The notes under the pieces: generated by a model | The model's database searches: none | The model's input: the letters and a program-made list of their open reading frames with translations, nothing else | Told to the model about the DNA's origin: nothing | Program-made: the position numbers and the translations under genes | Shown here: positions 28 through 31,600 of the stretch, piece after piece | Numbering within the stretch: position 1 is the first letter of the stretch | Layout: each line of letters opens with the position of its first letter | IMG/VR virus record: IMGVR_UViG_3300025133_000208 | Location: 1-45,326 of that record | From: a virus | Length of the DNA stretch: 45,326 nt | Strand: one strand, 5' to 3'

Positions 28-65
28 TTGGTTCGCGTTGCTCATTTCGCTATCTTTAGATATAA
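28..65 (+). promoter_or_regulatory. Host-like (early) promoter, copy 1
   Basis: TTGGTTCGCGTTG (28-40), ten bases, then TATCTTTAGATATAA (51-65), ending 11 nt before the ATG at 77. The same two boxes with the same spacing recur at 5450-5487 and 5912-5949. TTG, 20 bases, then TATCTTTA is close to the known Bacteroidota sigma-A pattern (TTTG, about 19-20 bases, TAnnTTTG). The direct repeat AGTTTCTAAAAA lies just upstream (1-25). Promoter function is inferred from recurrence and position. Confidence 0.75.
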
Positions 66-76
66 GAGATTGAGAG

Positions 77-304
77 ATGAAAGAACAGTTATTCAATATG
101 AGCCATCCAGACTTCCGTCACCTGTTAGGTACGCGAGTCGAGTTTATTTTCAAAGGTCGACGAATGATTGGCATTGCAGATTTCATTGGTGTTAATACCA
201 ATCTGCATAACCAGTTTCAAGTTACGGTTGATCGTTGTCCATTATGGCCAGTTGATCCAAAAACCATTAAAGAATGTCCACGTCAAAAGCCAATGTTCCA
301 ATGA
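77..304 (+). CDS. Small hypothetical protein (75 aa)
   Basis: First gene downstream of the promoter at 28-65, with the ATG 11 nt after the TATCTTTAGATATAA box. I do not recognise the 75-aa product. It is basic to neutral, with no membrane segment and no cysteine pair that would suggest a metal site. Residues about 18-55 could form a small beta-barrel fold, judging only by alternating hydrophobic strands. The stop codon overlaps the next ATG (ATGA at 301-304), so the two genes are probably translationally coupled. It may be an early protein of a short operon with the (p)ppGpp hydrolase candidate. Confidence 0.7.
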   Translation: MKEQLFNMSHPDFRHLLGTRVEFIFKGRRMIGIADFIGVNTNLHNQFQVTVDRCPLWPVDPKTIKECPRQKPMFQ

Positions 305-837
305 TACAAAAAGAGTTAAATGAAATACTGCATTTCGCTGCGATTGCGCATCAAGGACAAACGCGAAAGTATACCGGAGAGCCTTACATTGTACATCCTA
401 TAGCAGTTGCTAATAAAGTCGCTGAAATTGGTGGTAGCATGGAAATGCAAGCCGCGGCTCTCTTGCATGATGTACTTGAAGATACAGATGTAAGTGTCGA
501 CGAGCTTGGCCAGTTTCTTTTTTGTACAGTTGCTGTAAAAGATTCGGCAGAAGATATTTTAGATATGGTTATTGACCTTACTGATGAATTTGAAAAGGTT
601 AAATATCCAGACCTAAACCGAAAGACCCGAAAGGCGATGGAAGCCGATCGATTGTCTAAAGTCAGTGCCGATGCTCAAACAGTTAAATACTGTGACCTAT
701 TTGATAACACTCTTAGCATTACAGAGCATGATCCTAAGTTTTCTAAAGTATACCTTAAAGAAAAGGCAGTACTACTTGAAGCAATGACAGATGGAAATGT
801 TGAAATCCGCCAAGAATGTTTAAACCAGATTAAATGA
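301..837 (+). CDS. MESH1/SpoT-type HD hydrolase, probable (p)ppGpp pyrophosphohydrolase
   Basis: 178 aa from the ATG at 301, which overlaps the previous stop. An upstream in-frame ATG at 274 lies inside the preceding gene and is less likely. The family removes the 3'-pyrophosphate of (p)ppGpp in a Mn-dependent reaction. Visible signature: H17 in AHQGQTRKYTGEPYIVHP, H56-D57 in AALLHDVLEDT, then LTDEF (93-97), and D132 in VKYCDLFDNT, matching the H...HD...D metal ligands of RelA/SpoT hydrolase domains. No synthetase, TGS or ACT domain is present, so it is a stand-alone hydrolase. The short form resembles other phage and bacterial stand-alone HD proteins whose substrate is not always ppGpp. The fold is certain enough; the substrate is inferred. 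Confidence 0.82.
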   Translation: MIQKELNEILHFAAIAHQGQTRKYTGEPYIVHPIAVANKVAEIGGSMEMQAAALLHDVLEDTDVSVDELGQFLFCTVAVKDSAEDILDMVIDLTDEFEKVKYPDLNRKTRKAMEADRLSKVSADAQTVKYCDLFDNTLSITEHDPKFSKVYLKEKAVLLEAMTDGNVEIRQECLNQIK

Positions 838-953
838 TAGCACAATTAGTATTAGACCTTTTAATCGTTTCGACGTCAAGTATCATAGTATTTTATATGA
901 TAGGCGTTGCATGGTCCGAGGGGTTACCACAAAACAAAGATAATGAAAGCTAA
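834..953 (+). CDS. Small single-pass membrane protein (39 aa)
   Basis: A short reading frame starting at the ATG that overlaps the stop of the HD hydrolase gene (ATGA, 834-837) and ending TAA at 951-953, overlapping the start of the next gene by 11 nt. Residues 2-25 are almost entirely hydrophobic (IAQLVLDLLIVSTSSIIVFY), giving one transmembrane helix. The remainder is a short polar tail. Overlaps at both ends fit a real, translationally coupled gene. Function unknown. Confidence 0.5.
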   Translation: MIAQLVLDLLIVSTSSIIVFYMIGVAWSEGLPQNKDNES

Positions 954-1251
954 ATTAGGAGATGTAGTTAAATACCAATTCTTGGGATATCCAAAGGAAG
1001 GAACTATAACAAAGGTAAATGATGACAATTCATATACCGTTACAGATTTATCGACTAAAACCAATTATCCAAAGGCTAAGTTCTTTAAGTATATTAAAGA
1101 CGAAAAGAAGCAACCAGCCTGGGTTATCCTGGATAAGACCGGTAAAACAAAGGCGAGTGAAGCACCTAGGAAAGAATCGAATGATTTGGAACCTATGGAA
1201 TTAAAAAATGCAATAGATAAGCAACGAGATTTTTTAAACCATGATCTTTAA
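943..1251 (+). CDS. Hypothetical protein with SH3/KOW-like N-terminus
   Basis: 102 aa from the ATG at 943. A longer frame would need a TTG at 907 inside the preceding gene. The N-terminal 45 residues (KLGDVVKYQFLGYPKEGTI...) have the look of a small SH3- or KOW-like beta-barrel that reads 'a pathway into the fold, G-x-I-x-x-V'. The rest is lysine-rich and probably helical or disordered. A related N-terminal pattern is seen in the gene at 2400. No catalytic motif is visible and the function is unknown. Confidence 0.65.
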   Translation: MKAKLGDVVKYQFLGYPKEGTITKVNDDNSYTVTDLSTKTNYPKAKFFKYIKDEKKQPAWVILDKTGKTKASEAPRKESNDLEPMELKNAIDKQRDFLNHDL

Positions 1252-1283
1252 ATTTTAATGCCGAATAATGTGGCCTGACTTGG

Positions 1284-1292
1284 ATATTTATA
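1284..1292 (+). promoter_or_regulatory. Late-promoter-like box ATATTTATA
   Basis: ATATTTATA beginning 21 nt before the ATG at 1305, followed by TTAAAGGAAG, which holds a Shine-Dalgarno-like AAGGAAG. One of thirteen such boxes in the window, most at 21-26 nt from a start. Confidence 0.5.
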
Positions 1293-1304
1293 TTAAAGGA
1301 AGTT

Positions 1305-1520
1305 ATGATGATTACATTAGAAAATTTAAATACAGGTGCAGCTTTAGATGGTGATGAGCTAGAATTCTTCGTGGATGATGAAACCATGATTGGAGAGGTA
1401 TATTTAGATGGAGAATTAATATACCAGGATTTGGATATTGCTAATGAAAGATTATTGCGAATGAATTTTTATCAATCCTGGTGTGAATTAGATATGGGCT
1501 CTGAATTTGAATATGCTTAA
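1305..1520 (+). CDS. Small acidic hypothetical protein (71 aa)
   Basis: 71 aa, strongly acidic, with many Asp/Glu residues and no clear motif. Two consecutive ATGs (1305 and 1308) are possible starts. The first is preceded by AAGGAAG at normal distance. Upstream lies an ATATTTATA box and downstream another, so the gene may be its own transcription unit. The acidity could suit a nucleic-acid-mimic or inhibitor role, but nothing in the sequence proves that. Unrecognised. Confidence 0.65.
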   Translation: MMITLENLNTGAALDGDELEFFVDDETMIGEVYLDGELIYQDLDIANERLLRMNFYQSWCELDMGSEFEYA

Positions 1521-1528
1521 TATTTATT
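1520..1528 (+). promoter_or_regulatory. Late-promoter-like box ATATTTATT
   Basis: ATATTTATT beginning 24 nt before the ATG at 1544 and overlapping the last base of the preceding stop codon. Followed by TGAAAGGA (ribosome-binding-like). Confidence 0.5.
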
Positions 1529-1543
1529 TGAAAGGATTATACA

Positions 1544-1738
1544 ATGAGTAAAACGTCACATGAATTATATGAGTCCATGAAAGAGTTATGGGATACCTTT
1601 GAATCAGAGCATACCCGATTTGCTTCGAATGGATTTAAGACAGCGGCCGTTAAGTCAAGAAAGGCGATTAGTGAAATGAAAAAATTGATCACTGACTACC
1701 GTAAGCAATCATTGAACGAAACAAAAAAAATTATCTAA
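1544..1738 (+). CDS. Histone H1-like (Hc1-type) DNA-binding protein
   Basis: 64 aa. The pattern FESEHTRF...NGFKTAAVKSRKAISEMKKLITDYRKQ closely follows the small histone H1-like proteins common in Bacteroidota (Hc1 family), whose core reads roughly 'F..KGN.AAGTRARKAMQELK.L..DIRKE'. Expected role: a small helical protein that binds and compacts DNA non-specifically. The length is typical of the family. The gene follows an ATATTTATT box and AAAGGA, and its stop overlaps the next ATG (TAATG). As a phage copy it might condense phage DNA or interfere with host nucleoid proteins. Family assignment is from memory of the pattern. Confidence 0.62.
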   Translation: MSKTSHELYESMKELWDTFESEHTRFASNGFKTAAVKSRKAISEMKKLITDYRKQSLNETKKII

Positions 1739-2115
1739 TGAAAGATATACGTACAAAGTTAAAAGAAGAAGTTGCTGGTGTTATCAAAGAGGATAAGACG
1801 TACGGCACTTTAGCAGATCCAAAAGATTTTGATCCAATTGATCCAGAAATCAATGTGCAAGGATTTGGTACTTATAGCCGGACTCAATTGCGCGATGGAA
1901 TAGCGACAAGATTAAAGGCGGCCGCGGATACAGCTAAGAAAGCATCTTCCGGTGGACCAATGTCACATACAATGTATCGCAACCTTCGTGGTATCTTAGG
2001 TGAAATGTCAGCATTATATTATATGGTAAATGCTGAATTAGATGTTGCCGACCAATTGGAGAATATGCGTAAGCGAGGTGGCCGCCGCGATATACCAATC
2101 CCAAAACAATTTTAA
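1738..2115 (+). CDS. Hypothetical protein, coupled to the histone-like gene
   Basis: 125 aa. The ATG at 1738 shares its A with the stop of the histone-like gene. The N-terminus is helical and charged. The middle (residues 34-46) is a Pro/Asp-rich linker (FDPIDPEINVQGFGTY). Residues 50-110 look helical, ending in a basic patch (RKRGGRRD). No enzyme motif is recognised. The coupling suggests co-expression with the DNA-binding partner. Function unknown. Confidence 0.65.
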   Translation: MKDIRTKLKEEVAGVIKEDKTYGTLADPKDFDPIDPEINVQGFGTYSRTQLRDGIATRLKAAADTAKKASSGGPMSHTMYRNLRGILGEMSALYYMVNAELDVADQLENMRKRGGRRDIPIPKQF

Positions 2116-2123
2116 GATTTAAT

Positions 2124-2141
2124 TTGGTTTATTGAAACCAA
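2124..2141 (+). terminator. Stem-loop, possible weak terminator
   Basis: TTGGTTT (2124-2130), loop ATTG, AAACCAA (2135-2141): a perfect 7-bp stem in the 68-nt gap between genes, followed by AT-rich DNA but not a clean T-run. It could be a terminator or an RNA-stability element. Confidence 0.35.
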
Positions 2142-2183
2142 TTACTTATATTATTCTTAATTATTAATTTTAAACAATCAGTT

Positions 2184-2378
2184 ATGCCATTTTATGTAGC
2201 AAAAGTAAAAATTGCCACTGATACCCCTAAGGGTGTTAAGTGGGCTACGGAATCCTATCTTGTTGATGCCGTATCAGTAACACATGCAGAAACCAAAGTA
2301 AATGAAGACTTCAAAAATGATGGAGTTGAATTTGAAGTGAAAGGAGTTTCACAATCCAGAATTTGTAAAGTTATTTAA
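2184..2378 (+). CDS. DUF4494-like small protein
   Basis: 64 aa. The pattern FYVAKVKI...G.KWATESYLVDAVSVTHAE.KV.ED resembles the N-terminus of the Bacteroidota family DUF4494 (typically '...KVKYEK...KKVTE.YLVDALSFTEAEA'). Family members have no established function. The phage copy keeps only the core and is shorter than the usual bacterial proteins of over 100 residues. Preceded by an AT-rich leader with no clear Shine-Dalgarno sequence, as is common in Bacteroidota. Confidence 0.55.
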   Translation: MPFYVAKVKIATDTPKGVKWATESYLVDAVSVTHAETKVNEDFKNDGVEFEVKGVSQSRICKVI

Positions 2379-2399
2379 TAACCCTCTAAACAATTTTAA

Positions 2400-2762
2400 A
2401 TGTATAGTATTGGAGAAAATGTCATAATCAAGTATTATGATTCAAATCAAGTTGGACAAGTAGTAGATATCCACCGCAATAAAAACACTGGGGATACTTA
2501 TGATGTAATGTCCGAAAAAGGCACAATGTATAGCTATAGCGCTGTAGATAAGCCGAAACTAAATCAATATATCGATTCCGAGTTAACTGATAAGTTAATT
2601 GATACCGGCGATATTACTACCAATCTTAAAGTAGGATGGATTGGTAATTATGCTGATGGTGTTCAACCTTCCGCTTTCTGGTTAAATGGTGAAGAGCCTA
2701 ACCTATTTAATAACATGACAACGATGCTAGATGACGAAGGAACAGAAAAAAGTCCTGCTTAA
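2400..2762 (+). CDS. Hypothetical protein with SH3-like N-terminus (120 aa)
   Basis: 120 aa. Residues 1-45 (YSIGENVIIKYYDSNQVGQVVDI) look like a small beta-barrel similar in style to the gene at 943. The rest has no recognisable motif. Its 3' end overlaps the next gene by 32 nt in another frame. The upstream region lacks a strong Shine-Dalgarno sequence but has AAACAATTTTAA, the AT-rich type of leader. Unrecognised. Confidence 0.65.
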   Translation: MYSIGENVIIKYYDSNQVGQVVDIHRNKNTGDTYDVMSEKGTMYSYSAVDKPKLNQYIDSELTDKLIDTGDITTNLKVGWIGNYADGVQPSAFWLNGEEPNLFNNMTTMLDDEGTEKSPA

Positions 2763-3018
2763 ATATCCGGATGCAAAATTACATCATGGTATGAACGGAG
2801 AATGTTTTGTACAGGCAGGGGAATTAAATCTAAATGAAGAATTCTTAATGCCTGCTACAAGCGATCCTTCATTAGCATGGGAGTATGCAGCTTTATCAAC
2901 ACGCACCAAACAGCATTTTGATAGAACGCATCCTAACCGAATGAATCTTAGTTCGGATGAGAGAAAAAAATCACGTTATAGTAGACGTAGAAATAAAAGG
3001 AGAGCAAATGGGAGTTAA
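2731..3018 (+). CDS. Hypothetical protein with very basic C-terminus (95 aa)
   Basis: 95 aa starting inside the previous gene (32-nt overlap) and ending 11 nt into the methyltransferase gene. The C-terminal 20 residues are rich in Arg/Lys (RKKSRYSRRRNKRR), which would suit nucleic-acid binding. This region also carries the AAAGGAG site of the next gene. The start is uncertain because several ATGs lie close together near 2715-2731. Function unknown. Confidence 0.55.
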   Translation: MTKEQKKVLLKYPDAKLHHGMNGECFVQAGELNLNEEFLMPATSDPSLAWEYAALSTRTKQHFDRTHPNRMNLSSDERKKSRYSRRRNKRRANGS

Positions 3019-3748
3019 GAACTTAATTAAGAAAATGATCGATCCAGATTTCGCAAAGGAAATTGATATCCAGGAAGAAGATTTGCAGGTAGAAGCTTAC
3101 AATGAAAACTTTCCACCGGAAGAAGATAATGCGGCAGAATTACCAGAAATGGATAATCCGGCATTGCCAGAAGATTATTTAGAATATGCACCAGAAGCTG
3201 TTGGATATGGTAACAGAGAACAGCAGTTTGGTATTTATTCTACAATTGCACCTTACTTCGGAGACGATGATACCATTATGGACTTTGGTTGTGGTCGTGG
3301 AGACTTTTATGCCTGGTATACGCAGACATATAATAAGGAACCAAACTACCGAGGTATTGATTTAAGTGAACCTCTTATCGAAGCAGGCCTTAAGGTATAT
3401 CCTAACGCACAAATTATTTGTGGTGATTGGAATGATACCGCTCAATATGATATGGCCGATTGGTGTATAAACGTTGGATCTCTTAATATGAGATATGATG
3501 CTGATACCGTTACATCTGATATGGAATATTTTGATAAAACAGTATTAACAATGTTTGATAAATGTGAGAAAGGAGTGATTCTTTTACTTGCAAGTGACCT
3601 CATCAATGATGATGTGGAAGCTATATCGGTATTTAATGCCGGTGACACTCTAAATAGAGTTTTAAAATTAGTTGCAGACAAAAAAGGGTATGTAGCTTTA
3701 GATCATTCCTTCGCGGATGGTATGTTTAGTTTAATTATTTATAAGTAA
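3008..3748 (+). CDS. Class I SAM-dependent methyltransferase
   Basis: 246 aa from the ATG at 3008, which has a good AAAGGAG six bases upstream. The longer in-frame ATG at 2957 lies inside the preceding gene. Motif I, MDFGCGRGDF (91-100), binds the methionine part of SAM. YRGIDLSEPLI provides the acidic residue for the ribose, and ICGDWND follows. The N-terminal 65 residues are acidic and probably a flexible extension. No (D/N)PP(Y/F) DNA-adenine or PC cytosine motif is visible, so the substrate (protein, small molecule, RNA) cannot be named. Fits the pattern of accessory methyltransferases in T4-like phages. Confidence 0.8.
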   Translation: MGVKNLIKKMIDPDFAKEIDIQEEDLQVEAYNENFPPEEDNAAELPEMDNPALPEDYLEYAPEAVGYGNREQQFGIYSTIAPYFGDDDTIMDFGCGRGDFYAWYTQTYNKEPNYRGIDLSEPLIEAGLKVYPNAQIICGDWNDTAQYDMADWCINVGSLNMRYDADTVTSDMEYFDKTVLTMFDKCEKGVILLLASDLINDDVEAISVFNAGDTLNRVLKLVADKKGYVALDHSFADGMFSLIIYK

Positions 3749-3749
3749 G

Positions 3750-4019
3750 ATGGGTAGAATTAATAACAGTTTTGGATTTGATAAAAAGCGTACGCAAAAA
3801 TTAGGTAAATTTTATAATTCAATTGATTTCGAAATTAAATCAGATTATAGTGTGGATGAATTTAGAGATAATCCAAATAAGCCGGTAGTAGGTACATTTG
3901 AAATTGGTAATAAGCGATTCCCATTAACCTTCTCAGAGCTTAATCTTATCGAGCAAACAGTTCGTGAGGCCAAAGAAGCGGTTAATAAAGGATATTCTTT
4001 AGGAATGTCCGGCCGGTAA
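3750..4019 (+). CDS. Hypothetical protein (89 aa)
   Basis: 89 aa beginning one base after the methyltransferase stop. Mixed charge, with a basic start (GFDKKRTQKLGKFY) and a helical C-terminal half (LTFSELNLIEQTVREAKEAV). No transmembrane segment or metal site. Likely co-transcribed with the methyltransferase gene. Followed by a GC-rich hairpin region that may end the unit. Unrecognised. Confidence 0.65.
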   Translation: MGRINNSFGFDKKRTQKLGKFYNSIDFEIKSDYSVDEFRDNPNKPVVGTFEIGNKRFPLTFSELNLIEQTVREAKEAVNKGYSLGMSGR

Positions 4020-4020
4020 A

Positions 4021-4055
4021 GTAACGTAGGGCAGGGTAATACCTGCCCAGGTTAC
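4021..4055 (+). terminator. GC-rich stem-loop, possible terminator or switch
   Basis: GGGCAGG (4029-4035), loop GTAATA, CCTGCCC (4042-4048), flanked by an outer pair GTAAC (4021-4025) / GTTAC (4051-4055). GTTAC can instead pair with a second GTAAC at 4063-4067, so two structures compete. No T-run follows. The site lies between a stop codon and an ATATTTATA box. Confidence 0.45.
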
Positions 4056-4067
4056 TACCCGCGTAAC

Positions 4068-4076
4068 ATATTTATA
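4068..4076 (+). promoter_or_regulatory. Late-promoter-like box ATATTTATA
   Basis: ATATTTATA beginning 25 nt before the ATG at 4093, immediately after a GC-rich hairpin region. Confidence 0.5.
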
Positions 4077-4092
4077 TAAAAATAAGGCTTAG

Positions 4093-4287
4093 ATGATTTC
4101 AGAACAAATGGAAATAGCGATTGCTGATATTCTAGAAATTAAAGATTCGGAACAGCGATTGTCAAATTTAAAACAATTTCTGTCAGGATTTAAAGCTCAC
4201 TTTGAAAAATATGGCACTGATTATACACGTGTTGCAGCTCAAATATATATAAATGAACTTAGACGATCTTCACATAACAAGAGATGA
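4093..4287 (+). CDS. Small helical hypothetical protein (64 aa)
   Basis: 64 aa, largely helical, with no recognised motif. Preceded by an ATATTTATA box and AATAAGGCT. The 3' end overlaps the next gene by 35 nt. Unknown function. Confidence 0.55.
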   Translation: MISEQMEIAIADILEIKDSEQRLSNLKQFLSGFKAHFEKYGTDYTRVAAQIYINELRRSSHNKR

Positions 4288-4702
4288 TTTTGAATTCTTA
4301 AGAGAACTCAAATCGTATGAGAAGATTGAATTCTTATGGGATTGCCAGTTCGTAAATAAAGAATATTCATTAACTTCCGGCCTCGAGGAGATGGAGGAAG
4401 AGATTGAAATAGATCTTGAAGAAAATTTAGAATCATTAACAAGCCCTCACCATCCGATTGCGCATGAAGAATATTATGATTTTACTACTAGATCTAGACT
4501 AGTATTATCTATGTATAATGGTAGGCTACACGTTAATTGTACCAGCCTTAAATTATTACGGGCATGGATATTTAAAATGGTCGTAAATGATGGCGTTATA
4601 TTAGAACAAGTAAAGGACGCTAAAAAAGGAGAACATGACATCTATCGATATTACAAATGTTATACCATCCTAGGACGAGCTAATCCAATTTGTCCTAACT
4701 AG
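4253..4702 (+). CDS. Hypothetical acidic protein (149 aa)
   Basis: 149 aa, starting within the previous gene. Residues about 44-66 form a very acidic stretch (EEMEEEIEIDLEENLES). The C-terminal half is more hydrophobic and could form a small mixed fold (LVLSMYNGRLHVNCTSLKLL). Three cysteines are scattered without a CxxC pair. No known family. Its stop TAG at 4700-4702 touches an ATATTTATT box. Confidence 0.6.
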   Translation: MNLDDLHITRDDFEFLRELKSYEKIEFLWDCQFVNKEYSLTSGLEEMEEEIEIDLEENLESLTSPHHPIAHEEYYDFTTRSRLVLSMYNGRLHVNCTSLKLLRAWIFKMVVNDGVILEQVKDAKKGEHDIYRYYKCYTILGRANPICPN

Positions 4703-4703
4703 T

Positions 4704-4712
4704 ATATTTATT
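4704..4712 (+). promoter_or_regulatory. Late-promoter-like box ATATTTATT
   Basis: ATATTTATT located 74 nt before the heat-shock gene ATG, farther than the usual 21-26 nt. A copy of the inverted repeat lies in between. Confidence 0.4.
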
Positions 4713-4716
4713 ATAG

Positions 4717-4738
4717 ACTGATACTTAGCAGGTCGGTC
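4717..4738 (+). repeat. Left arm of inverted repeat flanking the sHSP gene
   Basis: ACTGATA, then CTT, then AGCAGGTCGGTC. The right arm at 5199-5217 reads GACCGACCTGCT followed directly by TATCAGT, so 12 + 7 bases match in inverted orientation with a 3-base difference between them. The arms bracket exactly one gene. Confidence 0.75.
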
Positions 4739-4777
4739 ACTTTTTATTAATTAACAAATCATCTAAGGAGATTTATT

Positions 4778-5191
4778 ATGGGAAATTTAACACACTTTGG
4801 CACATCGCCATTCGACATCCTTTTCAAGGATTTTTTTATTGCAGATGGAGAATTCGCTCCATTCAACCAAATCAGATTTAAGCATCCAGTAGATATTTAT
4901 GAGTCAAATGATTCATTGAATATCGATATTGCATGTGTTGGTCTAACAAAGAAAGATATTGATATCACTATCGAAGGAGATATCTTACGCGTTGAATACA
5001 AAAAAGACAAGATCGATGATCCTGTGGAATATATTCAGCGTAACATCGCAAAACGAGCCTTTAATATGGGCTGGAGAATTAGTAGAAAGTTCGACCTAGG
5101 TGGGCTAGACGCTAAACTCCAAAACGGATTGCTACATCTTAGCATTCCGCAATCAGAGGAAAACAAACCTCAATTAGTTACAATTAAGTAA
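4778..5191 (+). CDS. Small heat-shock protein (Hsp20/alpha-crystallin)
   Basis: 137 aa. An ATP-independent holdase chaperone that keeps unfolding proteins soluble. The alpha-crystallin domain starts near residue 35 (HPVDIYESNDSLNIDIACVG), continues with L.KKDIDITIEGDILRVEYKK and ends with the family's conserved LQNGLLHLSIPQ near residues 117-128. The length is normal for the family. The Shine-Dalgarno TAAGGAG is strong. T4-like phages of cyanobacteria often carry Hsp20 as well, where a role in capsid or host-protein protection has been proposed. The gene sits alone between two arms of an inverted repeat (4717-4738 and 5199-5217), suggesting a discrete cassette. Confidence 0.9.
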   Translation: MGNLTHFGTSPFDILFKDFFIADGEFAPFNQIRFKHPVDIYESNDSLNIDIACVGLTKKDIDITIEGDILRVEYKKDKIDDPVEYIQRNIAKRAFNMGWRISRKFDLGGLDAKLQNGLLHLSIPQSEENKPQLVTIK

Positions 5192-5198
5192 TTAACTA

Positions 5199-5217
5199 GA
5201 CCGACCTGCTTATCAGT
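5199..5217 (-). repeat. Right arm of inverted repeat flanking the sHSP gene
   Basis: GACCGACCTGCT + TATCAGT, the reverse complement of the left arm at 4717-4738 apart from three bases. It begins seven bases after the heat-shock gene stop codon. Neither arm forms a hairpin by itself. Confidence 0.75.
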
Positions 5218-5246
5218 TTATTACCTCGAATACGTTCATATACGAC

Positions 5247-5432
5247 ATGAGTCCAACCGATCATATAATCAAATACAACGATAACCTATATGTCGTTAAA
5301 CGAACTGTATGGGAACATCACCAGCCTATTATTAATGCATGGAAAGAACATCTCGGAGCCGATACCGTCTTACGTCGTGATGGTAAGCTATGGTTCTGCA
5401 TACAAATACCAGAAGCAGAAATAATAGAGTAA
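5247..5432 (+). CDS. Small hypothetical protein (61 aa)
   Basis: 61 aa with a tryptophan-rich, beta-like pattern (VVKRTVWEHHQP...LWFCIQIPE). No motif recognised and no clear ribosome-binding site. It lies between the right inverted-repeat arm and an early-type promoter. Coding potential is moderate. Confidence 0.5.
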   Translation: MSPTDHIIKYNDNLYVVKRTVWEHHQPIINAWKEHLGADTVLRRDGKLWFCIQIPEAEIIE

Positions 5433-5449
5433 CTTTTTTCAACTTTTAT

Positions 5450-5487
5450 TTGGTTCGCGTTGATCTTTTCGCCATCTTTAGATATAA
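5450..5487 (+). promoter_or_regulatory. Host-like (early) promoter, copy 2
   Basis: TTGGTTCGCGTTG (5450-5462), ten bases, CATCTTTAGATATAA (5473-5487). The first box is identical to copy 1 and the second differs by one base, with the same spacing. Followed by CCTTTAAAGA and the ATG at 5499, as in copy 3. Confidence 0.75.
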
Positions 5488-5498
5488 ACCTTTAAAGA

Positions 5499-5906
5499 AT
5501 GAGTAAGATGAATCAAGATTTTATGACCCGAGTGCATGATGAGTTAAATATTACGATTGGCGTTGATGACGTTGTTCGTGGTAAAATTGAAGCTTTCAAT
5601 AAAGCCGTCCATAGAGATCTGTGGTATGAGCATTTTATGAAAGCAATGAGAGCGGCCAAGACCGTGATTAAGCTTGAGAATATTACCATGCGCCAGGCAT
5701 GTGAGATGGCAGAATCGCTTAGAATTGCTAAGCCTAAGGCGTTTGTAAATGTTGAATCGCCTGAACCAAATGGGGACTTTATTTGCAATGTGACTTGGAA
5801 TGACCAATGCACCGAGTTTCTTGAGTATGAAACCTATACTGAGGAAGGCGCCGAGATAATCGCAGAGATTAAGCGCCAGCGGGAATCGATGCCAGTTAAT
5901 TATTAA
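5499..5906 (+). CDS. Hypothetical early protein (135 aa)
   Basis: 135 aa directly under an early-type promoter, with the ATG 12 nt after the promoter box. A second in-frame ATG at 5508 is an alternative start. Predominantly helical and mildly charged, with no cysteine pairs or known motifs. The leader CCTTTAAAGA is shared with the next gene. Unrecognised. Confidence 0.7.
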   Translation: MSKMNQDFMTRVHDELNITIGVDDVVRGKIEAFNKAVHRDLWYEHFMKAMRAAKTVIKLENITMRQACEMAESLRIAKPKAFVNVESPEPNGDFICNVTWNDQCTEFLEYETYTEEGAEIIAEIKRQRESMPVNY

Positions 5907-5911
5907 TTAAT

Positions 5912-5949
5912 TTGGTACTTTGGATTCAATTCCCTATCTTTAGATATAA
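5912..5949 (+). promoter_or_regulatory. Host-like (early) promoter, copy 3
   Basis: TTGGTACTTTGGA (5912-5924) and TATCTTTAGATATAA (5935-5949). The second box is identical to copy 1. The first shares TTGGT at the same distance but is otherwise diverged, showing which bases are kept. The ATG at 5960 follows after CCTTTAAAGA. Confidence 0.72.
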
Positions 5950-5959
5950 CCTTTAAAGA

Positions 5960-6436
5960 ATGAATGATATGATAGAGTATTTTAAGAGAGTAGCCAAAAT
6001 GGCAAAGGGTGAGAACCAGTCACCAGAAATGAGTGCGATTGCAGAGATTGCAAATAAGGCAGTTGCCAATCCAGAATGGACAAAGGACCAGGGTGGTGAT
6101 GACCTTGACCCCGGAGTGCAGATTCAGCAGATTATAGCTAGCGCCAAGAATAAGAGCAATAACCTAAACCGTATTAAGCAGCTTGTTAGTAGCCTGCACC
6201 TTCTAGAAGCGATTCGTGAAGGTCGGGTTGAGTTGGAAGATTTGCAAAATGTAAGTGGTTCTGATTATCCGGATTTTACCGATGCTTATTTCCAAACCGG
6301 ATACCTTACTTCCATTACGGAGCACCAAGGTAAGAAGATTGAAACGGTTAGAGAGTTAACTGAGGATGAAATGGAGTTCCTTGATTATGAGTGCGGTGAA
6401 TGGGTGTATGACCAAAAGCATGATACGTTATTTTAA
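5960..6436 (+). CDS. Hypothetical early protein (158 aa)
   Basis: 158 aa under the third early-type promoter. Acidic, mainly helical, with a second possible start at the ATG at 5969. The C-terminus is rich in acidic and aromatic residues (ELTEDEMEFLDYECGEWVYD). No family recognised. Sharing a promoter and leader with the gene at 5499 suggests simultaneous early expression. Confidence 0.7.
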   Translation: MNDMIEYFKRVAKMAKGENQSPEMSAIAEIANKAVANPEWTKDQGGDDLDPGVQIQQIIASAKNKSNNLNRIKQLVSSLHLLEAIREGRVELEDLQNVSGSDYPDFTDAYFQTGYLTSITEHQGKKIETVRELTEDEMEFLDYECGEWVYDQKHDTLF

Positions 6437-6505
6437 TGTTTATAATCTATACTTATTTATCTAATTCATGGATCTATTTTAAGCTGGTGATTCTTAGGTA
6501 TCGCG

Positions 6506-6514
6506 ATATTTATA
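6506..6514 (+). promoter_or_regulatory. Late-promoter-like box ATATTTATA with adjacent hairpin
   Basis: ATATTTATA 54 nt before the ATG at 6560. Between them lies a stem-loop, TAATCC (6519-6524) with GGATTA (6532-6537), containing the palindrome CCTGTACAGG (6523-6532), then AAAAGGAG. The 123-nt gap 6437-6559 holds nothing else I can identify. Confidence 0.45.
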
Positions 6515-6559
6515 ATAGTAATCCTGTACAGGGATTAATTTTAGAAAAGGAGTTTTAAC

Positions 6560-6739
6560 ATGGGACAAGTAAGAGATAAAGATGAAATTTTGCGACGGTT
6601 AGATGAGGCAGATAATATGTCACAAATGATTGTCGATTTAGCAAGTAAAAAAGCTATCGATACGAATGAAGCTGTAAGGCGATTAAATGAAATCAGACGT
6701 AGAATTCAATTTGCTATGGAGCGCATTAGCATTCAATAA
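6560..6739 (+). CDS. Small helical hypothetical protein (59 aa)
   Basis: A 59-aa frame from ATG 6560 to TAA 6737-6739, preceded by one of the best Shine-Dalgarno sequences in the window (AAAAGGAG, ATG 8 nt later). The product is charged and entirely helical in character (RDKDEILRRLDEADNM... AVRRLNEIRRRIQFAMERI), probably a small coiled coil. No match known to me. Confidence 0.65.
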   Translation: MGQVRDKDEILRRLDEADNMSQMIVDLASKKAIDTNEAVRRLNEIRRRIQFAMERISIQ

Positions 6740-6756
6740 TTTATTTTCCGGAAGTA

Positions 6757-7737
6757 ATGGAACGTAAACTACTTCCTATACTAGTAATAATATCTGCCGT
6801 AGCCGTTTCATTATCAGCTGCGTTCTATTCAGTTACTGGATTAGGTAAAATGTTTGCTGGTGCTAGCATGCAGGTTATTATTATGACCAGCACCCTCGAG
6901 ATAGCTAAACTAGTAGTAGCCTCATTATTATACCAGTATTGGGATAAGTTAGGTAAGTTCCTAAAGACATATCTAACAATTGCAGTTGGGGTATTGATGA
7001 TTATTACCTCAGGTGGTATATATGGTTACCTATCAGCCGCATATTCAGAGACCTCTAATAAACTAGAGGTGATAGATAAGAATGTAGCCGTATATGACCT
7101 TAAACGAAGTCGATACCAGGTTCAATTAGATGATATAAGCATTGAAAGGCAATCCTTAACAGAAAGTATTAGGGAATTATCTCGAGGCTTATCCAACAAT
7201 GTAATACAATATAAAGATGAAGAAGGTAATATTATTACTACAACTTCAAGTGCTACGCGTAAGGTATTAGAGCGGCAGTTAGATGATTCAAAGGTACAGC
7301 GAGATAAATTATCATTGCGAGAAGAAGCTTTAACAGATTCTATAACTCGGATTGACTTAATTAAATTAGACATGGAAACCGATTCTGATATAGCAGCTGA
7401 GATTGGTCCATTAAAGTATATTGCCGAATTAACAGGTAAAACAATAGACCAGGTAGTGAATTGGTTTATAATTGCATTAATGCTAGTATTCGATCCATTA
7501 GCAGTAGCATTAGTAATTGCTGCTAATACTATATTTTATAACACTAAAAAAGAAGATATGTTAGAAGAAAAAAATACTCCGACGGAATTTGATGAAGATG
7601 ATGCTTTAGACCAAGTCTTAAATAGCATGGTTGAAGATATCGATGAAGAGGCACCTCTCATCGAGGAAAATGTAATTGAAGAAAAAGAAGCTAAGCCGGC
7701 AGTGCCGACTAAAACAAGAAGTGTATCTAGTTACTAA
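6757..7737 (+). CDS. Four-helix membrane protein with internal coiled coil
   Basis: 326 aa. Hydrophobic segments at about residues 5-28, 38-61, 71-92 and 233-257. Between the third and fourth is a charged, helical region (about 95-215) that looks like a long coiled coil. The C-terminal 70 residues are acidic and disordered. TM2 carries a charged pair in a hydrophobic context (TSTLEIAKLVVAS, E48 and K51), suggesting a functional or oligomeric helix. Similar layouts occur in uncharacterised phage membrane proteins, but I cannot assign a function. Superinfection exclusion or envelope remodelling are possibilities only. Confidence 0.72.
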   Translation: MERKLLPILVIISAVAVSLSAAFYSVTGLGKMFAGASMQVIIMTSTLEIAKLVVASLLYQYWDKLGKFLKTYLTIAVGVLMIITSGGIYGYLSAAYSETSNKLEVIDKNVAVYDLKRSRYQVQLDDISIERQSLTESIRELSRGLSNNVIQYKDEEGNIITTTSSATRKVLERQLDDSKVQRDKLSLREEALTDSITRIDLIKLDMETDSDIAAEIGPLKYIAELTGKTIDQVVNWFIIALMLVFDPLAVALVIAANTIFYNTKKEDMLEEKNTPTEFDEDDALDQVLNSMVEDIDEEAPLIEENVIEEKEAKPAVPTKTRSVSSY

Positions 7738-7751
7738 ATCAATAAAAAGTT

Positions 7752-7940
7752 ATGGCAAAAAAATCAAAGTATAATTTCAAAACAAAAACTATCAATGGCG
7801 ATCGTCATATGATATGTCGTGGATCTGATAAAGAAGATAAATACTACCGGTATTCATTATGTGATAAGTATGTTAGAGCCACGGATGATGTAGTAGCAGT
7901 ATTATGCTCTACCTGCGTTACAAAGCATTTGGAACTTTAA
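7752..7940 (+). CDS. Small cysteine-containing (possible zinc) protein
   Basis: 62 aa with cysteines at about 23, 37, 51 and 54, the last two as CSTC. This could be a degenerate zinc ribbon. The N-terminus is lysine-rich (MAKKSKYNFKTKT). Lies 14 nt after the membrane protein gene, with AAAAAGTT before the ATG. Function unknown. Confidence 0.6.
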   Translation: MAKKSKYNFKTKTINGDRHMICRGSDKEDKYYRYSLCDKYVRATDDVVAVLCSTCVTKHLEL

Positions 7941-7976
7941 TATTATTTTATTATATTGTTTATTAAATAAAGATAT

Positions 7977-8726
7977 ATGAAACTAACAGCTGAACAAATA
8001 CAAGAGAATTGGAACCGTTTAAGAACTATTATAAACAAAGAGTTTCCAGATAGAGCAGAAGCTCTAAACGTTATATATGATGAATTTGAAGAACGCATTA
8101 TGTTAATGCCTGCTTCAAGTATGGAACATTTCCATAATGCATTTCCGGGTGGTTATGTAGACCACATATTACGTGTATATGATTGTGCCGCTACGGTTTA
8201 TAATTCATGGGAAGCAATGGGATCGGATATGTCTGGATATGACATGAACGAACTTAAGTTTGCCGCTATTCATCACGATCTCGGTAAAGTAGGTTGGCCA
8301 GGTAAGAATGGTGAAATATATATTCCAAATGATTCTGAATGGCATCGTAAGAATCAAGGACGCATCTATAAAGTGAACCCAGAGAATCCATTTGCAATGG
8401 TACCTGATTTAGGTTTATGGATGTTACAGCAATATAATGTAAAAGTATCTTGGAATGAATACCAGGCCATTCGTATCCATGATGGATTATATGATGAATC
8501 GAATAAACCATATTATATATCTAGATTTCCAGATTCCAGATTAAGAGTTAGTTTGCCAATTGTGTTGCATCATGCAGACCATATGGCATCCGTTATAGAA
8601 TATGAAAGATGGAAGACGGGTAGTAGTAATGCACCTAAAAAGGCACCGGTTAAAAAAATAAATGCTAAATCAATATCATCATCCGATAATAAAGTTGATG
8701 ATATCTTTAAAGGGTTATTTGAATGA
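7977..8726 (+). CDS. HD-domain metal-dependent phosphohydrolase
   Basis: 249 aa. Metal ligands visible as H63 (GGYVDHILRV), H100-D101 (IHHDLGKVG), H168 (IRIHDGLY) and D201 (LHHADHMA), the standard order of HD phosphohydrolases. It differs from the RelA/SpoT type at 301: there is no YxxHP...LLHDVLEDT. It is closer to the broad HD group acting on nucleotides or cyclic nucleotides. The C-terminal 35 residues are a Lys/Ser-rich tail. Overlaps the next gene as ATGA (8723-8726). Exact substrate unknown. Confidence 0.8.
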   Translation: MKLTAEQIQENWNRLRTIINKEFPDRAEALNVIYDEFEERIMLMPASSMEHFHNAFPGGYVDHILRVYDCAATVYNSWEAMGSDMSGYDMNELKFAAIHHDLGKVGWPGKNGEIYIPNDSEWHRKNQGRIYKVNPENPFAMVPDLGLWMLQQYNVKVSWNEYQAIRIHDGLYDESNKPYYISRFPDSRLRVSLPIVLHHADHMASVIEYERWKTGSSNAPKKAPVKKINAKSISSSDNKVDDIFKGLFE

Positions 8727-9028
8727 TAGAATGGGCACTAGGTATAGTATCAGTAATATTAGTTATATTAATTCCAATTATAATTAATCTATTACGCAAA
8801 TTAGAAAATGTGGAAGAATATGTTGAACAATTAGAATCATCTAATTCTAGATATGAAGTATTCTTTGAATCAGTACGTAAAAAATCAAATAATAATTATT
8901 CATATATACGTCAATTAGATCGTATAGGTTCCTTTGAAGCAGATGATGAGACCGGAGTAATCTTTAATACGCTTAAAGATATTGTAGAAGAATTAAACAA
9001 AGAATTTGATGGGGCGGAAGAAAACTAA
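8723..9028 (+). CDS. N-terminally anchored membrane protein (101 aa)
   Basis: 101 aa. Residues 2-24 form a strong transmembrane helix (WALGIVSVILVILIPIIINLL), followed by a charged, probably coiled-coil region (LENVEEYVEQLESSNSRYE). Overlaps the HD gene by 4 nt and the sigma-factor gene by 20 nt, hence probably co-translated. The layout recalls an i-spanin, but a better candidate pair lies at 39691-40387. Function not assigned. Confidence 0.65.
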   Translation: MIEWALGIVSVILVILIPIIINLLRKLENVEEYVEQLESSNSRYEVFFESVRKKSNNNYSYIRQLDRIGSFEADDETGVIFNTLKDIVEELNKEFDGAEEN

Positions 9029-27730: not shown

Positions 27731-28654
27731 ATGGGTTATAAACTAGACGGACTAATCGAATCGGTATTAGGTAAAGGGCGTGCGACTAACAAAGGTAATG
27801 TTGCATATTTCTGTCCTTTCTGTCATCATCAGAAGCGTAAACTTGAAGTAAGCCATGTTAACCAGTCATGGCATTGTTGGACGTGTAATGCAGCTGGCAG
27901 AAAATTAGTAACGCTATTTAAAAAGCTTAAGGTAGATAGAATACGTATTTCGAATCTATTTACCTTGCTAGATGAAACTGAATATAAACATAAAGTTACT
28001 ACTACAGAAACACCAGTTGTAGAATTACCCGTAGAATTCAAACCATTATGGGAATTAGATTCTAAAAATCCAGAATATAGAAATGCGGTTGCATATCTAA
28101 GAACGCGTGCTATAGGCATTGCTGATATATTGAAATATAGAATTGGTTATTGTGAGTCTGGTAAGTATGGTGGCAAAATTATTATACCTAGCTATGACGC
28201 AAATGGTTCATTGAATTATTTTGTATCCCGGGCATATTATGAATCAGATAATTTTAAATATAATAATCCACCTGTATCTAAAGATATTATAGGGTTTGAA
28301 TTATTTATCAATTGGGACTTGCCGATTATACTAGTTGAAGGTGCATTTGATGCTATAGCTGTTAAGCGTAACGCAATACCGCTATTTGGTAAAACGATTA
28401 GTAATACACTTAAAATGAGGATTGTAGAAAAACAAGTAACATCAATATATGTGTGTTTAGATAAAGATGCGCGGAAGCAAGCATTTGAAACGGCTGAATA
28501 TTTCATGGGTAATGGTATTGAAGTTTACTTCGTTGATATACAGGATAAAGACCCGTCCGAAATAGGATTTCAGGATATTATTTCTTATATTGATAATACT
28601 TATAGGCTCACGGAAGAACGATTAATGGAAGAGAAGATTTTATGCATGTTGTAA
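27731..28654 (+). CDS. 61: DNA primase (DnaG/gp61-type)
   Basis: 307 aa. Zinc finger at the N-terminus with C28, C31, C49 and C52 (CPFCHHQ ... WHCWTC). TOPRIM catalytic core with E203 (ILVEGAFDAI) and D244/D246 (CLDKDA). It makes RNA primers for lagging-strand synthesis together with the replicative helicase, which is not in this window. Length is similar to T4 gp61 (342 aa). The gene overlaps the next one by 13 nt. Confidence 0.88.
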   Translation: MGYKLDGLIESVLGKGRATNKGNVAYFCPFCHHQKRKLEVSHVNQSWHCWTCNAAGRKLVTLFKKLKVDRIRISNLFTLLDETEYKHKVTTTETPVVELPVEFKPLWELDSKNPEYRNAVAYLRTRAIGIADILKYRIGYCESGKYGGKIIIPSYDANGSLNYFVSRAYYESDNFKYNNPPVSKDIIGFELFINWDLPIILVEGAFDAIAVKRNAIPLFGKTISNTLKMRIVEKQVTSIYVCLDKDARKQAFETAEYFMGNGIEVYFVDIQDKDPSEIGFQDIISYIDNTYRLTEERLMEEKILCML

Positions 28655-31600
28655 AGAAAATAGATATCGGATTATCTAAGATAGACCGAATATATCATAT
28701 TGCTGATGTTCATGTACGTAATTTAAAACGTCATAAAGAATACCGAATTGTATTTAATAGATTGTACAAATATATTAAAAGTACAAAAACACCTAATAGC
28801 GTAATTTATATCGCAGGTGATATCGTACATTCTAAAACAGACCTATCACCGGAATCAGTTGATCTTGTAAGTGAATTTTTTATTCGATGTGCGGATCTTG
28901 CCCCTACCATTATAATTGCTGGTAATCATGATTGTAATTTAAATAATAGTTATCGGTTAGATGCTATTACGCCAATTGTCAATGCTATTAATCATCCATC
29001 GGTATATTATCTTAAGGATACTGATATATATGAATTAGGCGATTGTCAATTCAATGTTATGTCAGTATTCGATAAGCCAGCTGATTTTATTCGCGGAGCT
29101 AATTTTGAGGGTAAAAATAAGATTGCATTGCATCATGGTGCGGTGCATAATGCCACAACTGATTTAGGTATATCATTATCAAATACTCATGTTACTAATG
29201 ATTTATTTGCTGGCCATGATTTAGTCTTGTTAGGTGATATTCATAAAACGCAATATCTTAACAATGAAAAAACTATAGCATATCCAGGTTCATTAATACA
29301 GCAATCACATGGAGAGGTTTTAGTACATGGTATTATGGTATGGGATGTAGCTAAAAGAGAATCTGAATTCGTACCAATTAAAAATGATTATGGTTATTAT
29401 ACGTTTGAGGTTAAAAATGGCAAGATCGTTAATGCATCTAATAATGTACCACCTAAGCCTAGGCTGCGCCTTAAAGTAACGGATACGGATACTAGTGCCG
29501 TGAAATTAATTGTAACTGAGCTCAAACAAAAATATAAGGTTAAAGAATTAAGCATTCAGCGGATTAATAATCTTAACCAAAGTGCAGTAACACGAAAAAT
29601 TAATTTTGCTGATTATAGAGAAGTTGAAGCTCAAAATAAAATTATAAGCGAATATTTAACTGATAATTATGTTATAGCAGAACCAGTACTAGATGCAATC
29701 CGACATATCAATCGAAAAGTCCATAGCAAGATACCAGAACTAGTTGCAAACCGGAATGTAACATGGATACCTAAAGTGTTTGAGTTTTCCAATATGTTTA
29801 GTTATGGGGATTCCAATAAAATTGATTTTACTAATATGACTGGTACATATGGATTATTCGCTCCAAATGCTACCGGTAAATCAACATTATTGGATGCGTT
29901 ATCATTTTGTTGTTTTGATAAATGTTCTAGGACATCAAAGGCTCGCCATGTATTAAATAATAAAAAATCATCCTTTCAATCAAAGTTTGAATTTGAATTA
30001 GAAGGTCGTACATATTATATAGAACGAGGCGGTGTTAAAAATAATCATGGTCATGTAAGAGTAATTGTTAATTTTTGGTCTATAGACGAGGATGGTAATA
30101 AAGTATTGCTTAATGGCGATCAACGTGATTCCACTAATAAAGTTATACGTACGTATTTAGGTACATACGATGATTTTATTTTAACGGCATTATCATTACA
30201 AAATAACAATACTGGATTTATCGATAAATCTCAACGAGAACGAAAAGATTTATTATCACAGTTTTTAGATATTGATATATTTGATCAGCAATATCAAATC
30301 GCAAATGAAGAAATAAAAGAAACGGCAGCAGCTATAAAGGAACATAAGCGAACTGATTATTCGACAGAACTTTCCGAAGCAATCACAACTATAAATTCTG
30401 TATCAGCTTCTTTACAAGAATACGATAAAGAGCGTGGTAGCTTAATTGAAATACGTACTGCATTATCAACTGAATTATTAAATACCACTAAAGATCTTAA
30501 GCCGGTAGATTCTGAACTAACAGATATAAAATATTTGCATGAGCAATATTTACATTTCACTCAATCCGCTGCTATTCTTGAAGGTACGATTCATGACTGG
30601 AATACGGATTTAAAAGAAACGGAAGAGTTAATAGAGACTACCCGCACTGCATATGATAATTTAATTGTAGATGGATTGCCTGAGAAAATAGAAGAATGCG
30701 AAACTGCAATATATCATATCAAATCACTTCATGGTAACCTTAAGGTACAGCAAGATATATTATCGCATAAAGAGTCGCTAGCATCTCAATTAGAAATGCA
30801 TGAATATGATCCAGATTGTACTTATTGCACATCAAATCCAATAGTGCAAACGGCAATTATAGAATCAGAATCAATTCCAGATATTACAAGCAAGATTGAT
30901 GATTTAACTAATAAAATTGCATATTCAAGTAGTTTATATAATAAGGATTCATATAATATATTGGTATCTGATTTAGGTACAGCTGAATCTGATTTAGGTG
31001 ATGCAATTAAAAAAGAATCATCAATTAAATATGAATTAAGTAAGATTGATTCTGAATACCAGGCAGTTAAATGGAATTTAGATAAATATATAGATCTTCT
31101 TGCTAAGGCTGAAGAGCAAAAAGAAATAGTTAAAGCTAATAAAGAGTTAAATGAGCAGATAGTAATAATTGAATCTGAATTATCTGATACAGAATCTGAA
31201 ATTGATGAGATTGAAAGTAAAATATCAAAATTACGTCCTAAACTAATTATAGCTCAAAAAACTAAAACAGACGTTGAAAAGTCTATAAAGCGATTAATTG
31301 AATTAGAACAATCATATACCGGATATGAATATTATCTTAAAGCCGTTAAACGAGATGGGGTGCCATATGATTTAATTACAAAAGCATTGCCACAAATTGA
31401 AGCTGAAGTAAATAATATCTTAACCCAGATAGTTGAATTTACAGTATTGCTTAATACTGATGGTAAGAATATAAATGCATATATTGTATATGATACTGAT
31501 AATTATTGGCCATTGGAATTGACATCAGGCATGGAAAAGTTTATCGCAAGTCTTGCAATACGAGCTTCATTAATACACGTATCCAGTTTACCTCGTCCCA

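What the first reader, a model, noticed from the sequence alone, without database searches (positions are those of the whole stretch)
301..837. Phage-encoded (p)ppGpp hydrolase candidate in an early operon
A stand-alone HD protein with MESH1/SpoT hydrolase signatures sits directly behind an early-type promoter. Hydrolysing the alarmone early could block the host stringent response and keep transcription and replication running. It could instead act on another nucleotide signal, including those made by ppGpp-like toxin enzymes of anti-phage defence (toxSAS).
Basis: partly seen in the sequence, partly recalled or inferred. Interest (0 to 1): 0.6.

Follow-up and report, generated by a model that had tools for sequence, protein, structure and literature searches.

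The report
Phage-borne small alarmone hydrolase gene
This bacteria-infecting virus carries an intact gene for a known kind of enzyme that removes a pyrophosphate from alarm nucleotides and, in a tested relative, from blocked tRNAs; it probably protects the infection from host shut-down systems, and it is a new member of a known family.

Summary
Window 301-837 (+) encodes a 178-aa stand-alone RSH-type HD protein with every hydrolase residue kept (R22, H32, H56-D57, E60-D61, D132, N136). AlphaFold is confident (pLDDT 97.8); the best solved matches are MESH1 and bacterial small alarmone hydrolases (SAHs). In a tree it falls in one well-supported, mostly phage SAH clade with PaSpo of Salmonella phage SSU5, outside MESH1, Lmo0812 and long Rel/SpoT. 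PaSpo-SSU5 is published as a toxSAS neutraliser that removes the toxin's tRNA modification. So this is a new member of a known kind.

The promoter claim is right in substance. A Bacteroidota-like element at 28-62 repeats across the non-structural region of this phage family and has no strong copy in the window's structural region. The SAH is second behind it, after an overlapping 75-aa ORF.

I favour detoxification of host toxSAS products over simple stringent-response block, but the substrate is untested. A new lead from relatives: in one SAH sub-lineage the domain is fused to, or within about 2 kb of, a phage CCA-adding tRNA nucleotidyltransferase, pointing to tRNA 3'-end repair. No such gene was found in the window's own phage group.

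The parts
301..837 (+). Stand-alone RSH-type HD hydrolase (small alarmone hydrolase, paSpo-like clade), 178 aa; predicted Mn ligands H32, H56, D57, D132; catalytic E60-D61; R22 and N136 nucleotide contacts
28..62 (+). Promoter-like element TTGGTTCGCGTTGCTCATTTCGCTATCTTTAGATA (Bacteroidota-like -33 TTG / -7 TAnnTTT), one of a repeated family
77..304 (+). 75-aa ORF of unknown function, first gene behind the promoter; its stop overlaps the SAH start (ATGA); 5 codon differences from the 153-kb relative; no family match, and no match at the SAH loci of other phages
5450..5484 (+). Second copy of the same promoter-like element (3 mismatches), before ORF 5499-5906
5912..5946 (+). Third, more diverged copy of the promoter-like element, before ORF 5960-6436

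Best explanation
A phage small alarmone hydrolase. Shown by sequence and model: a stand-alone HD enzyme of the RSH type with all metal and catalytic residues, in one clade with the tested phage SAH PaSpo-SSU5. Inferred from the family: with Mn2+ it hydrolyses the pyrophosphate from the 3' position of a ribose, on free nucleotides ((p)ppGpp, (p)ppApp) and probably on the 3'-terminal adenosine of tRNA that toxSAS enzymes have pyrophosphorylated. Inferred from the repeated promoter: it is made before the structural genes. Most likely role: to undo the products of host toxSAS-type abortive-infection enzymes (tRNA-CCA-pp, (p)ppApp) and, as a side effect or second benefit, to lower (p)ppGpp, so that translation and nucleotide supply continue. 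My own split: about 0.95 that it is an active 3'-pyrophosphohydrolase of the SAH kind, about 0.55 that removal of toxSAS products is the main selected function.
For: Domain and family matches. Catalytic residues R22, H32, H56, D57, E60, D61, K129, D132, N136 are identical in 79 of 79 viral relatives aligned. AF2 pLDDT 97.8, pTM 0.92. Foldseek: human and Drosophila MESH1 TM about 0.80-0.83, then SAHs of Leptospira, Pseudomonas and Corynebacterium. Tree: 78-row clade (97/98) with SSU5 PaSpo, excluding long RSHs, MESH1 and Lmo0812. PaSpo-SSU5 removes the FaRel2 tRNA modification and neutralises its toxicity; it is also co-expressed when CapRel-SJ46 is produced (PMC11559606; PMC9712102). SSU5 and PVP-SE1 SAHs rescue a (p)ppApp-making toxSAS (PMC7644958). 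A related SAH sub-lineage is fused or linked to CCA-adding enzymes. Repeated promoter with no strong copy in the structural region.
Against: No substrate assay. SAHs with the same core residues differ in substrate: RelSeq takes (p)ppGpp only, SAHMex (p)ppApp only, Mesh1 both (PMC7644958), so the residues do not decide. The CCA-linked SAHs are one sub-lineage that does not include the window protein, and no PolyA_pol gene was found in the 153-kb relative. The host and its toxSAS content are unknown. The gene is absent from the nearest terminase relatives, so it is accessory.
Confidence: 0.55

Rival explanations
1. It lowers host (p)ppGpp early in infection and blocks the stringent response.
For: Same fold and residues as (p)ppGpp hydrolases MESH1 and Rel/SpoT HD. 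Promoter distribution fits non-late expression. The idea has been voiced for a Pseudomonas phage SAH without a test (PMC12846349).
Against: Some SAHs do not act on (p)ppGpp (SAHMex, PMC7644958). A phage MazG previously implicated in lowering ppGpp does not hydrolyse it (PMC6850273), so the general idea has failed once for another phage enzyme. The best tested relative acts on toxSAS products.
Confidence: 0.25
2. It is part of tRNA upkeep: removal of 3'-pyrophosphate or other blocks from tRNA 3' ends, working with CCA-adding enzymes, whether or not a toxSAS is the cause.
For: In a sister phage sub-lineage the SAH domain is fused to a tRNA nucleotidyltransferase with intact motifs (GGAVRD, DxD, RRD, EDxxR) or lies about 1.3-2 kb from it; one such locus adds a class II aminoacyl-tRNA synthetase-like gene. 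The relative G002 encodes tRNA genes upstream of the SAH.
Against: The window protein is outside that sub-lineage; no CCA enzyme in G002; the fused proteins also hold unrelated domains (NT5C, ParB-like, acetyltransferase-like), so fusion may reflect joint packaging or modular growth.
Confidence: 0.12
3. It acts on another nucleotide, for example as an NADPH phosphatase as reported for MESH1 and Xanthomonas SAH, or on another defence signal.
For: Closest fold hit is human MESH1; XccSAH hydrolyses NADPH in vitro with about 40-fold lower efficiency than Mesh1 (PMC9765508).
Against: The window protein is outside the MESH1 branch; NADPH did not seem to be hydrolysed by Mesh1, MESH1 or SAHMex under the coupled-assay conditions of PMC7644958.
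Confidence: 0.06
4. Decayed or inactive HD protein.
For: None found.
Against: All catalytic residues kept, high-confidence model, intact frame in three contigs, more synonymous than non-synonymous codon differences.
Confidence: 0.02

Closest known systems
PaSpo, small alarmone hydrolase of Salmonella phage SSU5 (SSU5_099)
   Same: Stand-alone RSH-type HD domain, phage-encoded, same well-supported clade, 44.7% identity over residues 12-165, same catalytic residues and same C-terminal motif
   Different: SSU5 is a different phage with a different gene neighbourhood; the window protein has an 8-residue insertion around 69-78 and a shorter C-terminus; window protein untested
MESH1 (HDDC3), human 3nr1 / 5vxa / 9chy
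   Same: Fold (TM about 0.82) and metal-site residues
   Different: About 25% identity; outside the phage clade in the tree; different region after the last HD motif
SAH of phage PVP-SE1 (represented here by its homologue GAP31_029 of Cronobacter phage GAP31)
   Same: Phage-encoded stand-alone SAH; the PVP-SE1 one is reported to rescue a toxSAS (PMC7644958)
   Different: Very diverged and not placed in the window's clade
Antitoxin SAH ATfaRel of the FaRel toxin-antitoxin operon
   Same: SAH that neutralises toxSAS products (PMC11782079)
   Different: Encoded next to its toxin; no RelA/SpoT synthetase family was matched among the window proteins scanned near the SAH, so the window gene is not part of such a visible toxin-antitoxin pair
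Cyanophage MazG
   Same: Phage enzyme proposed to lower (p)ppGpp
   Different: Different enzyme family (established knowledge); shown not to hydrolyse (p)ppGpp (PMC6850273)

Membership tests
Small alarmone hydrolase (SAH) class of the RSH superfamily | RSH-type HD domain with metal ligands and catalytic ED pair (RelSeq H53, H77, D78, D144; E81-D82; R44, N148) | tested here: met
   R22, H32, H56, D57, E60, D61, D132, N136 present; RelSeq numbering from established knowledge, alignment
Small alarmone hydrolase (SAH) class of the RSH superfamily | No synthetase, TGS or ACT domain; HD domain alone | tested here: met
   178 aa; significant Pfam matches are HD families only, and the RelA/SpoT models match over their HD part only
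Small alarmone hydrolase (SAH) class of the RSH superfamily | RSH HD fold | tested here: met
   AF2 pLDDT 97.8; Foldseek best hits MESH1 and SAHs
Small alarmone hydrolase (SAH) class of the RSH superfamily | Hydrolyses the 3'-pyrophosphate of (p)ppGpp or (p)ppApp | not testable with these tools
   needs an enzyme assay
paSpo subgroup (by its phage member SSU5 PaSpo) | Groups with SSU5 PaSpo apart from MESH1, the Lmo0812 group and long RSH proteins | tested here: met
   78-row clade, support 97/98; the exact subgroup of Atkinson et al. 2011 (PMC3153485) was not re-derived from their set
paSpo subgroup (by its phage member SSU5 PaSpo) | Neutralises toxSAS toxicity and removes the tRNA-CCA modification | not testable with these tools
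   shown for SSU5 PaSpo in PMC11559606, not for this protein
MESH1 subgroup | Groups with metazoan MESH1 in the HD tree | tested here: not met
   HsMESH1 fragment falls outside the 78-row clade; the MESH1 row is long-branched, so its own place is unsure
toxSAS toxin-antitoxin SAH antitoxin | Adjacent toxSAS (RelA/SpoT synthetase domain) gene | tested here: not met
   window genes scanned in 77-9028 match no synthetase family; not every small ORF was scanned, and the window begins 300 bases before the gene

The most novel reading that the evidence does not exclude
Phage SAHs of this clade are tRNA 3'-end repair enzymes rather than stringent-response switches: the SAH strips the pyrophosphate that host toxSAS put on tRNA-CCA, and a CCA-adding enzyme restores the end. 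In one phage sub-lineage the two are fused in 1,100-1,400-aa proteins, most of which also carry a deoxynucleotidase. These begin with a short N-terminal tag shared by many other proteins of those phages, which looks like a capsid-targeting tag and would mean delivery with the DNA.
Probability: 0.3. Interest if true: 0.65.

Novelty: new member of a known kind. Interest (0 to 1): 0.32.

Why it matters
Phage SAHs are widespread (283 phage records and at least 550 IMG/VR contigs here), but only two are reported as tested in the papers read. The window adds a well-conserved one with a clear promoter in a T4-like phage of a probable Bacteroidota host, far from the tested enterobacterial examples. 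The CCA-adding fusions found in relatives turn a vague 'alarmone' story into a testable tRNA-repair hypothesis for phage counter-defence.

Tried and rejected
Sigma-70 promoter scan: no + strand site before the gene; replaced by the repeated Bacteroidota-like element. Megablast of window 1-25000 against named phages: no match. Search for a toxSAS partner: none among the neighbours scanned. Neighbours scanned beside the best bacterial homologues (L105, L106, L107, L109): no synthetase domain, so no toxin-antitoxin context seen there. The 75-aa ORF and the downstream small ORFs as conserved partners: no tblastn hit at the SAH loci of other phages. CCA-adding enzyme in the window's own phage group: none in the 153-kb relative. 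The shared N-terminal tag is absent from the SAH; one loose match in the window (ORF 7977) is at chance level. The control for the CCA link (0 of 50 terminase-selected contigs) is weak because those contigs add up to only about a third of the bases; the stronger point is that 12 of 13 CCA genes lie in the SAH gene or within about 2 kb of it. Literature search for SAH plus tRNA nucleotidyltransferase plus phage: no paper in the library. Atomic geometry of the metal site was not measured, because the model coordinates were not at hand.

Full report
WHAT IS THERE. Window 301-837 (+) is a 178-aa ORF. It matches HD_4 (3e-11) and HD in Pfam, PHROG 990 and 32047 (phosphohydrolase), and the HD part of the spoT_relA model, with no match to the synthetase part. 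By sequence, the only solved relatives are Rel, RelA and SpoT proteins (over their hydrolase domain), MESH1, and small alarmone hydrolases or similar HD proteins. An alignment with 17 relatives and a second one with 61 keep the RSH hydrolase residues: R22, K23, H32, H56-D57, E60-D61, K129, D132 and N136, all invariant or nearly so. In 79 viral relatives R22, H32, H56, D57, E60, D61, K129, D132 and N136 are invariant. R22, H32, H56-D57, E60-D61, D132 and N136 correspond to R44, H53, H77-D78, E81-D82, D144 and N148 of RelSeq, the Mn ligands and catalytic residues (numbering from established knowledge). An AlphaFold model from 62 sequences has mean pLDDT 97.8; Foldseek puts human and Drosophila MESH1 first (TM about 0.80-0.83) and then bacterial SAHs.

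WHERE IT BELONGS. A maximum-likelihood tree of 95 HD domains puts the window protein in a 78-row, mostly phage clade (support 97/98) that holds PaSpo of Salmonella phage SSU5 and leaves out MESH1, the Lmo0812 group and long Rel/SpoT proteins. Deep rows are long and the bootstrap had not settled, so fine order is rough. Its nearest neighbours are other viral contigs and SAHs of Bacteroidota (Flavobacterium, Desertivirga). Phage SAHs are common: 283 named phage records, 550 of the first 600 matching IMG/VR stretches, and 311 plasmid records.

THE PHAGE. The window is a 45-kb virus contig with 35% GC and 97% coding. It has a baseplate wedge gene, a terminase large subunit and a portal gene. The best named terminase matches are Microcystis phage Mel-JY01 (57%) and Flavobacterium phages 'immuto' (55%), whose records carry T4-like head genes. 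Two relatives carry the same gene: a 34-kb contig (100%) and a 153-kb contig, G002 (90%). The gene is missing from the immuto and Mel-JY01 genomes and from three large contigs picked by terminase, so it is accessory.

THE PROMOTER. The sigma-70 scan shows no + strand site before the gene. However, the 76 bases before the operon are 99% identical between the window and G002, although the gene further upstream has diverged. Inside them, TTGGTTCGCGTTG-N8-CGCTATCTTTAGATA (28-62) is a repeated element. It has three copies in the window (28, 5450, 5912), about a dozen or more strong co-oriented sites in 50 kb of G002, most of them just before an ORF start, and only one weak hit in window 7000-45326, the structural region. 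The spacing TTG-N20-TAnnTTT resembles the Bacteroidota -33/-7 consensus (established knowledge), which agrees with a Bacteroidota host. The first gene behind it is a 75-aa ORF whose stop overlaps the SAH start.

HOW IT LIKELY WORKS. The family removes a pyrophosphate from a 3'-ribose position with Mn2+. The tested phage relative PaSpo-SSU5 removes the modification that the toxSAS FaRel2 puts on tRNA CCA ends and neutralises its toxicity (PMC11559606); it is also co-expressed when CapRel-SJ46 is produced (PMC9712102). SAHs of SSU5 and PVP-SE1 rescue cells from a (p)ppApp-making toxSAS (PMC7644958 citing Jimmy et al. 2020). Because toxSAS such as CapRel act in phage defence, I think removal of toxSAS products is the most likely main role, with lowering of (p)ppGpp as rival or side activity. 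Sequence cannot decide: enzymes of this kind take (p)ppGpp only, (p)ppApp only, or both (PMC7644958). Another phage enzyme previously implicated in lowering ppGpp, cyanophage MazG, does not hydrolyse it (PMC6850273).

A LEAD FROM RELATIVES. In nine of 50 SAH-bearing virus contigs the SAH domain is part of a 1,145-1,247-aa ORF that also holds a tRNA nucleotidyltransferase and, in most, a 5'(3')-deoxyribonucleotidase. In three more contigs the CCA enzyme is separate but near: divergent at 1.3 kb, or co-directional at 2.0 kb. In the thirteenth it is about 40 kb away. The enzyme keeps GGAVRD, DxD, RRD and EDxxR motifs. Of 80 loci found with this CCA family, 11 have a fused SAH and 7 a near one. 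That search was seeded from SAH-linked loci and many contigs are near-copies, so the independent evidence is about four arrangements within what looks like one SAH sub-lineage. One locus adds a class II aminoacyl-tRNA synthetase-like gene. No paper in the library holds the terms small alarmone hydrolase, tRNA nucleotidyltransferase and phage together. This supports a tRNA 3'-end role for part of the clade, but the window protein is outside this sub-lineage and no CCA enzyme was found in G002.

VERDICT. The protein is an SAH by every feature I could test, and a new member of a known kind: phage SAHs, two of which are already reported to counter toxSAS. The substrate and the benefit to this phage are unproven. 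The SAH-CCA fusion is the part a specialist would find new; it lies in related phages rather than in the window.

Noticed in passing
L040:2539-6210, L052:2545-6285, L072:2779-6453, L360:3578-7852: Phage ORFs of about 1,150-1,425 aa that fuse an SAH domain with a CCA-adding tRNA nucleotidyltransferase, in most with a 5'(3')-deoxyribonucleotidase; several contigs from different metagenomes.
   Followed up: partly
L285-L364 (CCA-enzyme loci): A short shared N-terminal tag (roughly M-K/R-I/L-x-E/D-I/F-x-x-E) on 66 of 76 CCA-enzyme ORFs and on 68 of 555 other + strand ORFs, against 4 of 146 on the other strand; looks like a T4-type capsid-targeting tag, so these enzymes may be packaged in the virion.
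   Followed up: partly
window 28-62, 5450-5484, 5912-5946; G002 loci L010-L012: Repeated Bacteroidota-like promoter family in the non-structural part of this phage group; useful to assign hosts and early or middle operons.
   Followed up: partly
window 7977-8726: A second HD-like protein (249 aa; PHROG 5889 and 28876, the latter a metal-dependent phosphohydrolase) near the structural genes; no Pfam match.
   Followed up: no
window 28642-31797: 1,051-aa ORF that appears to join an SbcD-like nuclease (N-terminal) and an SbcC-like ATPase (C-terminal) in one protein.
   Followed up: no
L112:2965-4308: Bacterial contig ORF with an SAH domain and a C-terminal Swt1-like HEPN domain, a possible defence or toxin arrangement.
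   Followed up: no
L282:4877-5704 (-): Class II aminoacyl-tRNA synthetase-like gene near the SAH and CCA-enzyme pair.
   Followed up: no
L012:1710-1997 (-): ARAGORN calls a permuted tmRNA-like gene in the 153-kb relative; may be a false call.
   Followed up: no
L022 (CAKLQH020000003.1): Record labelled 'Acinetobacter phage MD-2021a' is a bacterial chromosome stretch here (ispH, gmk, rpoZ, spoT), so some 'phage' hits in the collection are host sequence.
   Followed up: partly
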